The position numbers and the translations under genes were made by a program. A DNA stretch of 64,000 bases, from NCBI GenBank assembly GCA_027487315.1, contig JAIYDW010000249.1, forward strand, positions 1 through 64,000, written 5' to 3'. The DNA is from Verrucomicrobiaceae bacterium (lineage in GTDB: Bacteria; Verrucomicrobiota; Verrucomicrobiia; Verrucomicrobiales; Verrucomicrobiaceae). Positions 6,898-9,013 of the stretch are shown piece after piece. The notes below the pieces were generated by a model. The model searched no databases. It was not told the DNA's origin and saw only the letters and a list, made by a program, of their open reading frames with translations. Numbering within the stretch: the first letter of the stretch is position 1; each line of letters opens with the position of its first letter.

Positions 6898-8340
6898 ATG
6901 AGCAAAAAAAGTGATTTTGGATTGATTGGCCTCGCCGTGATGGGGCAGAACCTGGTGTTGAACGTCGAGAGCCGCGGCTTTCAGGTGAGCGTTTACAATC
7001 GGACGACGAGCGTGACGGATGAGTTTTTGGCGAAGCATCCGGATAAGCAGTTTGTGGGAGCGCATACGTTGGAGGCGTTTGTGGAGAGTTTGGCGACGCC
7101 GAGGAAGATTCACATCATGGTGAAGTCGACGGCAGTGAAGGACAGCGATCGCGATGCGGTGGATGCGGTGATCGAGCAATTGATCCCGCTTTTGGACAAG
7201 GACGATATTGTGATCGACGGTGGGAACAGCTTTTATCAGACGACGGAGCGTCGGGATGCGTACCTGGCTTCGAAGGGGTTGCGTTTCATTGGAGCGGGTG
7301 TTTCGGGCGGGGAAGAAGGGGCGCGTAAGGGGCCATCGATCATGCCTGGCGGGCCTGCGAGCACCTGGGAGGTGATGAAGCCGATTTTTGAGAGCATCGC
7401 GGCGAAGGTGGACGGGGAGCCGTGCGTGATTCACATTGGACCGGGCGGGGCGGGTCATTACGTGAAGATGATTCACAACGGGATTGAGTATGGCGACATG
7501 CAGCTCATTTGCGAAGCCTACAACATCTTCAAGCATGCGGGTTTCACGACGGATGAGATGGCGGCCATTTTCAATGAATGGAATGAGGGCGAGCTGCTCA
7601 GCTACCTGATCCAGATTTCTGGCAAGGCGCTGGAACAGAAGGATCCGGAGACCGGGAAGCCGATCGTGGAGCTGATCGTTGATAAGGCGGGTCAGAAGGG
7701 CACGGGTCAGTGGACGCTGATGAATGCGGCGGAGAACGCGATTGTGATCAGCACGATCAATGCGGCGGTGGAAGCCCGGATCTTGAGTTCCAAAAAGAAG
7801 GCGCGCGTCGAGGCGAGCAAGCTGCTGACGGGCCCAACGGTGAACATCACGATGGAGAAGGCTGAGCTGGTGAAGAAGGTGCATGACGCGCTTTATGCGT
7901 CGAAGATCATCAGTTACGCGCAGGGGCTGGATTTGATCAAGTCGATGGGCGAGGCGAAGAAGTGGGGGCTGGATTTGGGGCGGATTGCGAGCATTTGGCG
8001 CGGGGGTTGCATCATTCGCGCGCGGTTCCTCAACAGCATTACGGATGCTTATCGGAAGGATCCGGGGTTGAGCAATTTGATGCTGGCTCCGTTCTTCATT
8101 GATGTGCTGAGCCGGACGCAGCAGAACTGGCGTGAGGTGGTGGCGCTTGCGACGTTGAACGGGATTCCGGTGCCGGCGTTCAGTGCTTCGCTGGGTTACT
8201 ACGACAGCTATCGTGCGGAGCGGTTGCCGGCGAACTTGCTGCAGGCGCAGCGGGATTTCTTTGGGGCGCACACGTATGAGCGGGTGGACAAGCCGGAGGG
8301 GCAGTTTTTCCACACGGACTGGCCTGAGGTGATCGGGTGA
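6898..8340 (+). CDS. gnd: 6-phosphogluconate dehydrogenase, decarboxylating
   Basis: This enzyme oxidises and decarboxylates 6-phosphogluconate to ribulose 5-phosphate with NADP+, in the oxidative pentose phosphate pathway. The ATG at 6898 is chosen because the conserved N-terminus starts there (MSKKSDFGLIGLAVMGQNL, Rossmann loop at residues 11-19). The product is 480 residues, the normal length of the long form. Conserved segments include DGGNSFYQTTERR, GVSGGEEGARKGPSIMPGG and the MIHNGIEYGDMQ active-site helix, followed by the all-alpha C-terminal domain ending in HTDWPE. It is separated from the PKS by a divergent 225-bp region and followed by a degraded toxin gene. No glucose-6-phosphate dehydrogenase gene is nearby. 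Confidence 0.96.
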   Translation: MSKKSDFGLIGLAVMGQNLVLNVESRGFQVSVYNRTTSVTDEFLAKHPDKQFVGAHTLEAFVESLATPRKIHIMVKSTAVKDSDRDAVDAVIEQLIPLLDKDDIVIDGGNSFYQTTERRDAYLASKGLRFIGAGVSGGEEGARKGPSIMPGGPASTWEVMKPIFESIAAKVDGEPCVIHIGPGGAGHYVKMIHNGIEYGDMQLICEAYNIFKHAGFTTDEMAAIFNEWNEGELLSYLIQISGKALEQKDPETGKPIVELIVDKAGQKGTGQWTLMNAAENAIVISTINAAVEARILSSKKKARVEASKLLTGPTVNITMEKAELVKKVHDALYASKIISYAQGLDLIKSMGEAKKWGLDLGRIASIWRGGCIIRARFLNSITDAYRKDPGLSNLMLAPFFIDVLSRTQQNWREVVALATLNGIPVPAFSASLGYYDSYRAERLPANLLQAQRDFFGAHTYERVDKPEGQFFHTDWPEVIG

Positions 8341-8352
8341 GGTTGACTTGCC

Positions 8353-8772
8353 ATGGCCTTTCAGATTGAATTCAAACCCAAGGCTGTGAAGGACATGGAC
8401 AAGTTGACGTCCGATATTGCCGTCCGAGTCATCAAGAAGCTTGAACCCGGACGCCGACATTGGAGGCACCCGATAGGCTTGAGCATTGGTCGCTCAAGGC
8501 TTTCCACTCCTTGGGCGGCATCCTAAAAGATGCAGCCGCTGCGGTCTGGAAAGCCTTGGGCAACCAAGCCTCTGCGCCTCTCAAGCACCTCGAATGTCGG
8601 AATCCGGGTTGAGTCGTTGCGGGCTGGGCTGAAGGGTGGAGACGTGAAACGTCTCACCAACTTCAGTCCGGAGTACCGTCTCCGAGTCGGTGACTACCGA
8701 GCGCTGTTTGAGGTGGAAGGATCAGCCATCATCGTGTATAGAGTCATTCACCGCCGGGAAGCATACCGTTGA
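8353..8772 (+). pseudogene. RelE/ParE-type toxin gene interrupted by a palindromic element
   Basis: The 5' part encodes MAFQIEFKPKAVKDMDKL and on to codon 30. The 3' part (from 8613) encodes SLRAGLKGGDVKRLTNF through YRVIHRREAYR. Joined without the insert they give an 83-residue protein with the normal RelE layout, including the GDVKRL and YRLRVGDYR motifs of this mRNA-interferase family. A 165-bp palindrome plus a 3-bp duplication (168 bp, a multiple of three) separates them at codon 31. The frame is kept through the insert except for one TAA at 8524-8526, with an ATG following at 8530. The intact family cleaves mRNA at the ribosome. This copy is probably inactive unless the stop is read through or splitting is tolerated. 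The antitoxin gene follows 4 bp later. Confidence 0.85.
8445..8609. mobile_element. 165-bp palindromic insertion element (MITE-like)
   Basis: The ends are ACCCGGA (8445-8451) and its complement TCCGGGT (8603-8609), extended inward as ACCCGGA-NN-CCGACATT-N-GAGG on both arms. Inner arms also pair, GGCTTTCCA with TGGAAAGCC and GGCGGCATC with GATGCAGCC, closing on a CTAAAA loop, so the entire element folds as one long stem. TGA flanks both ends (8442-8444 and 8610-8612; TTGA if one end base is given to the target). This fits a short target-site duplication. It encodes no transposase; one frame (8481-8609) is open but has no start. It resembles a miniature element mobilised in trans; the mobilising enzyme is unknown. 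Confidence 0.8.
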
Positions 8773-8776
8773 CGCC

Positions 8777-9013
8777 ATGATCAAGCTCAAACCTGAAATC
8801 ATTCACCACAATGGCAAACCTCAGTTCGCCGTGATTCCTTATGCGGATTTTCTTAGCCTGCAGGAAGAGCTTGAGGATGCCGCGTGCTTGCGGCTTCTCC
8901 GCAAGGCCAAGGCCAAGGAGTCTGATGCTCCCACGGTTTCTATGAGCGCGCTGAAGTCAAAGTTGGGGATTACGCCCCGCCAGCGGAGCCGGCCTTCCAC
9001 CTCTGCGACTTGA
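8777..9013 (+). CDS. Phd/YefM-type antitoxin, partner of the broken RelE gene
   Basis: A 78-residue protein starting MIKLKPEIIHHNGKPQFAVI. This N-terminus matches the DNA-binding domain of Phd/YefM-family antitoxins (a beta-strand, then PYADFLSLQEELEDAA as the helix). The C-terminal half, with KAKAKESDAPTVSMSALKSKLG, would be the flexible toxin-wrapping tail. The ATG at 8777 is 4 bp after the toxin stop, so the order is toxin first, antitoxin second, as in some RelE/HigB-type modules. The antitoxin itself looks intact although its toxin is interrupted. It may persist as an autoregulator or as an orphan that protects against related toxins; that is inference. Confidence 0.75.
   Translation: MIKLKPEIIHHNGKPQFAVIPYADFLSLQEELEDAACLRLLRKAKAKESDAPTVSMSALKSKLGITPRQRSRPSTSAT

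What the first reader, a model, noticed from the sequence alone, without database searches (positions are those of the whole stretch)
8353..8772. RelE-type toxin gene split in frame by a 165-bp palindromic element
The insertion with its 3-bp duplication totals 168 bp, so the toxin frame is preserved on both sides and the only block is one TAA in the insert, followed four bases later by an ATG. The toxin could be silenced, translated as two fragments, or made by readthrough. Meanwhile the antitoxin is intact. It is a natural record of insertion into a toxin gene with precise ends.
Basis: partly seen in the sequence, partly recalled or inferred. Interest (0 to 1): 0.65.

Follow-up and report, generated by a model that had tools for sequence, protein, structure and literature searches.

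The report
Toxin gene broken by miniature transposon
A small hairpin-shaped mobile DNA element, one of dozens of copies in this bacterium, has landed inside the toxin gene of a toxin-antitoxin pair and most likely silenced it; such events are ordinary, but the element family is undescribed in the papers searched and has an unusually conserved imperfect-hairpin shape.

Summary
The split toxin gene is real. A RelE/ParE-type toxin (PF05016) is interrupted at the equivalent of residue 30-32 of its 81-83 aa intact homologues by a palindromic element; a 78-aa Phd/YefM-like antitoxin follows, intact. Across 55 copies the element is 163-166 bp (CCYR...YRGG) with a 5-bp NTNAN target duplication, not 3 bp. 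Here it is 8446-8608 with TTGAA/TTGAG. At least eight other insertion sites are empty, without gaps, in sister species, so the element is mobile. It belongs to a family of at least four subfamilies and about 40 or more copies per genome, found only in one Verrucomicrobiaceae genus. It is a MITE-like non-autonomous transposon; no parent transposase was found. Frame preservation carries no weight: 163+5=168 is the subfamily's usual length. The apical in-frame stop is also typical (18 of 20 copies). Silencing is therefore the best reading; readthrough or a working two-piece toxin is unlikely. The most interesting by-product: the four subfamily consensi diverge by compensatory changes in the stem, while nine unpaired stem positions are invariant, suggesting the folded hairpin itself is recognised. 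New member of a known kind; low to moderate interest.

The parts
6907..8340 (+). gnd, 6-phosphogluconate dehydrogenase, upstream neighbour; 99% identical protein in two congeners
   Evidence: TIGR00873 E 2e-204
8353..8445 (+). 5' piece of RelE/ParE-type toxin gene (about 30 residues); the open frame runs on into the element to the TAA at 8524-8526 (57 aa)
   Evidence: PF05016 weak, E 0.064; aligns to residues 1-30 of intact homologues
8441..8445 (+). left copy of 5-bp target duplication, TTGAA
   Evidence: family-wide duplication statistics and empty sites
8446..8608 (+). MITE-like palindromic element, subfamily A, 163 bp, ends CCCGG...CCGGG
   Evidence: 35 matches in own genome; covariance-model hits in three genomes; fold z -8.4
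8524..8526 (+). in-frame TAA at the hairpin apex; 18 of 20 subfamily-A copies have a stop in this frame
8530..8532 (+). ATG of the downstream open frame, inside the apical stem; no strong ribosome-binding site seen just upstream
   Evidence: inference
8609..8613 (+). right copy of target duplication, TTGAG (4 of 5 identical)
8614..8772 (+). 3' piece of toxin gene (52 residues plus TGA)
   Evidence: PF05016 profile positions 36-89, E 1.5e-7; 65% identical to the L059 homologue over the aligned part
8777..9013 (+). antitoxin, 78 aa, Phd/YefM- and RelB-like, intact
   Evidence: PF02604 E 0.0015 and TIGR01552 20.5 bits against a cut-off of 20.8; homologous to the antitoxins beside L059 and L060

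Best explanation
A non-autonomous, MITE-like palindromic transposable element of a genus-restricted family inserted, presumably by a transposase acting in trans, into an NTNAN target (TTGAA) inside the toxin gene of a toxin-first RelE/ParE-Phd/YefM-type pair, duplicating 5 bp. The insertion puts 56 codons, including the element's apical TAA, into the toxin frame between the equivalents of residues 30 and 32, so no complete toxin is made. The antitoxin gene remains open. Shown: element identity, mobility, duplication and gene split. Inferred: silencing of the toxin, transposase-mediated mobility, and lack of function of the two fragments.
For: Multicopy family in own genome. 5-bp NTNAN duplication in 55 copies, 25 of them 5/5. 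Ungapped empty sites in congeners for at least eight other copies. Intact homologues lack the insert. Both pieces match opposite halves of PF05016. In-frame stop in 18 of 20 subfamily-A copies. The correct toxin halves and a matching target duplication on both sides argue against a repeat-mediated misassembly.
Against: No transposase with matching ends was found. The exact orthologous empty site is not available, because both congeners lack the toxin-antitoxin pair downstream of gnd. Neither toxin piece has decayed further, which leaves room for some retained use or simply for a recent insertion. No expression data.
Confidence: 0.88

Rival explanations
1. The element is an RPE-like in-frame guest: the toxin is still made by stop-codon readthrough or by termination and reinitiation at the ATG just after the stop, giving two fragments that may assemble.
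For: Total length 168 is a multiple of three; ATG lies 3 nt after the TAA; no other stop or frameshift in either piece.
Against: In-frame length is the subfamily norm (16 of 20 copies are 163 bp) and the stop in this frame is present in 18 of 20, so nothing here is tuned to the gene. The ATG sits in the apical stem of a hairpin near -99 kcal/mol with no clear ribosome-binding site. Copies are overwhelmingly intergenic in a rough coding scan.
Confidence: 0.06
2. The insertion is adaptive: silencing the toxin while keeping the antitoxin was selected, for example so the retained antitoxin acts as an anti-addiction module.
For: Antitoxin open reading frame intact and close behind the toxin stop (8772/8777).
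Against: No test of selection was possible; toxin genes are expected to lose function neutrally, and a second decayed homologue (frame broken, L061 in G006) shows such decay without this element.
Confidence: 0.05
3. Assembly artefact: a repeat copy chimerically joined in a metagenome assembly.
For: Repeats of this family often sit at contig ends, so they do disturb assembly.
Against: Left and right flanks are the matching halves of one toxin gene, in order and in frame, with a 4/5 target duplication.
Confidence: 0.02

Closest known systems
Bacterial MITEs (for example Chunjie of Geobacter, QMITEs of Coxiella)
   Same: Short, non-coding, terminal inverted repeats, target duplication, tens of copies, polymorphic between related genomes, occasional gene disruption (PMC10969869)
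   Different: Nearly the whole 163-166 bp is one imperfect hairpin with nine invariant unpaired stem positions; 5-bp NTNAN target; parent transposon not found
Rickettsia palindromic elements (RPE)
   Same: About 150-bp palindromes, several families, one copy here in frame inside a gene
   Different: RPEs are reported as often inserted in genes with the frame kept open (PMC10969869); here the frame carries a stop and copies are almost all intergenic
REP/REPIN sequences with RAYT (Y1) transposases
   Same: Palindromic, dispersed, hairpin recognition plausible; Y1 transposases exist in these genomes
   Different: Much longer unit, 5-bp duplication, and no clear enrichment near the Y1 genes (2 copies in 61 kb)
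RelE/ParE toxin with Phd/YefM or RelB-like antitoxin (type II toxin-antitoxin)
   Same: PF05016 halves, small downstream antitoxin; nearest solved sequence match of an intact homologue is toxin RelE3, 3bpq
   Different: Toxin gene interrupted; toxin-first order, shared with homologues L059 and L060

Membership tests
MITE | short, non-coding, multicopy dispersed element | tested here: met
   163-166 bp; 35 matches in own genome and many in two congeners
MITE | terminal inverted repeats | tested here: met
   whole-length palindrome, CCCG..CGGG or CCTA..TAGG ends
MITE | target site duplication | tested here: met
   5-bp NTNAN, 25 of 55 perfect, mean 82% identity; ungapped empty sites
MITE | mobilised by a known autonomous transposon with the same ends | tested here: inconclusive
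   no long end pairs; IS1380-type and DDE_Tnp_1 transposases absent in own genome; draft assemblies could miss it
Rickettsia palindromic element | inserted into genes with an open reading frame maintained | tested here: not met
   stop in the toxin frame in 18 of 20 copies; copies nearly all intergenic (rough)
REP/REPIN with RAYT | short tagged palindrome linked to a Y1 transposase gene | tested here: not met
   long element, no clear enrichment at Y1 loci
RelE/ParE superfamily toxin (PF05016) | profile match over the domain | tested here: met
   3' piece 32.4 bits over cut-off 23, 5' piece weak; intact homologues cover 1-89 of 89
Type II toxin-antitoxin pair | neutralising antitoxin gene adjacent | tested here: inconclusive
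   antitoxin scores below Pfam cut-offs but is homologous to neighbours of intact toxins; neutralisation not testable here

The most novel reading that the evidence does not exclude
The element family is recognised and mobilised (or acts) as a folded imperfect hairpin, by an unidentified transposase that reads invariant mismatches in the stem yet leaves a 5-bp NTNAN duplication, which would be an unusual combination. Basis: all 29 varying stem pairs among four subfamily consensi include a double change, while nine unpaired stem positions are invariant and 97% conserved across 48 copies, against 77% for paired positions.
Probability: 0.25. Interest if true: 0.55.

Novelty: new member of a known kind. 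Interest (0 to 1): 0.32.

Why it matters
It documents a toxin gene cleanly interrupted by a recently mobile miniature element, and defines an undescribed-looking element family restricted to one Verrucomicrobiaceae genus. The sharper point is the element's hairpin: stem sequence changes by compensation while specific mismatches stay fixed, which makes a structure-recognising mobilisation mechanism testable.

Tried and rejected
3-bp and 4-bp duplications: identity 22% and 41%, against 82% for 5 bp. IS1380 as parent (suggested by CCT ends and 4-5 bp duplication): no match in own genome, only weak ones in G001 and G002, the G001 one lying in an ORF that matches DDE_Tnp_1 better. Long end pairs marking an autonomous element: none, all pairs are MITE-sized. 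RAYT association: 2 copies in 61 kb of Y1 neighbourhoods, near the chance level I estimated. Rfam: nothing above gathering score. First coding-potential model was poorly calibrated and discarded; the second is rough and failed to call gnd, so its intergenic verdict is indicative only. Orthologous empty toxin: not obtainable, congeners lack the pair. Papers: no description of this family or of a MITE in a relE-type gene turned up in the searches made.

Full report
What is there. The frame starting at ATG 8353 reads 57 codons to a TAA at 8524-8526, resumes at ATG 8530 and ends at 8772; the two halves match the beginning (weakly, E 0.064) and the end (E 1.5e-7, above cut-off) of Pfam ParE_toxin PF05016. 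A 78-aa Phd/YefM- and RelB-like antitoxin follows at 8777-9013; it scores below the Pfam cut-offs but is related to the antitoxins beside intact homologous toxins in G051 (L059) and G030 (L060). Upstream is gnd.

The insertion is real. Intact toxins of 81-83 aa in other genomes of the same family and order (L059, L060, L062) have no counterpart of the inserted stretch. Aligned separately, the N piece ends at column 30 and the C piece begins at column 32, leaving at most about one residue between them. The two toxin flanks were not joined.

Its ends. Collecting 55 copies from three genomes shows that the element runs from CCYR to YRGG, 163 bp in most A and C copies, 166 in B, 164 in D, and is flanked by a 5-bp duplication of form NTNAN: mean identity of the two 5-mers is 82%, 25 of 55 are perfect, and the other lengths tested give 16-41%. 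Here the duplication is TTGAA/TTGAG around 8446-8608. The overall 168-bp gain is unchanged.

It is mobile. Joining 60-bp flanks of 24 other (non-toxin) copies of the window's genome and searching three congeners gave contiguous, ungapped matches across the junction for at least eight sites (L123, L127, L128, L132, L133, L135, L141, L004), each keeping one copy of the 5-mer position; other sites were filled, and several are filled in one congener and empty in another. The family is found in the own genome and in two of three congeners, and in none of the other genomes of the family and order searched. Elements also insert into one another (L146, L129) and next to one another.

How it most likely works. 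These are MITE-like non-autonomous elements. A parent was not found: all inverted end pairs are MITE-sized, IS1380-type and DDE_Tnp_1 transposases are absent from the own genome, and Y1 transposases exist but are not clearly associated with copies. In the toxin gene the element adds 56 codons with a stop at the hairpin apex. Subfamily A carries a stop in this frame in 18 of 20 copies and has length 163 in 16 of 20, so the preserved frame and the stop are properties of the element, not adaptations to this gene. The downstream ATG is within the apical stem of a very stable hairpin. Silencing of the toxin is inferred, not shown.

Chance and artefact. The palindrome is far beyond shuffles (z -8.4). 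A chimeric assembly through the repeat would not place the two correct halves of one toxin gene, in order and in frame, with a matching duplication.

Context. In the two congeners with 99% identical Gnd protein, the toxin-antitoxin pair is missing downstream of gnd; in G003 the same interval holds a short, decayed relative of the element. The pair is therefore a variable locus, and an exact orthologous empty site could not be obtained.

A structural point. The four subfamily consensi are 54-73% identical, yet share 55 stem pairs (present in at least three of four); 211 of 220 cells are paired, and all 29 pairs that vary include a change on both sides, against 3-7 when partners are slid by 1-3 columns. 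Nine unpaired stem positions (window 8474, 8484-8485, 8511, 8534, 8542, 8568-8569, 8580) are identical in all four consensi and average 97% across 48 copies, against 77% for paired columns (Fisher p 0.0005). The pairing statistics are favoured by structures having been derived from these same sequences; the invariance of the mismatches is not obviously so, though the nine positions were picked after seeing the alignment. Recognition of the folded hairpin is the natural reading; it is not demonstrated.

Verdict. Observation real with corrected ends; interpretation partly supported. A new family of a known kind of element, with an ordinary consequence for the gene.

Noticed in passing
window 8446-8608 and loci L123-L161: Four element subfamilies differ by compensatory stem changes but keep nine unpaired stem positions invariant.
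   Followed up: partly
L089 (G003), just downstream of gnd: A short, decayed relative of the element lies in the interval where the window's genome carries the toxin-antitoxin pair.
   Followed up: partly
L011, L013, L014, L016: Internally deleted copies of about 85-95 bp that keep both ends, apparently a recurrent short form.
   Followed up: no
L146, L129, L154: Elements of one subfamily inserted inside or directly beside elements of another, reusing NTNAN targets.
   Followed up: no
L002, L005, L033, L035, L041, L124, L125, L131, L138: Many copies lie within about 10 bp of a gene's 3' end, as expected if NTNAN targets overlap stop codons (rough gene calls).
   Followed up: partly
L061 (G006): Another homologue of the toxin is itself broken, by a change of frame near the same region.
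   Followed up: no
G000, G001, G003: Six to eight Y1-type transposase genes per genome, with no clear link to this element family.
   Followed up: partly
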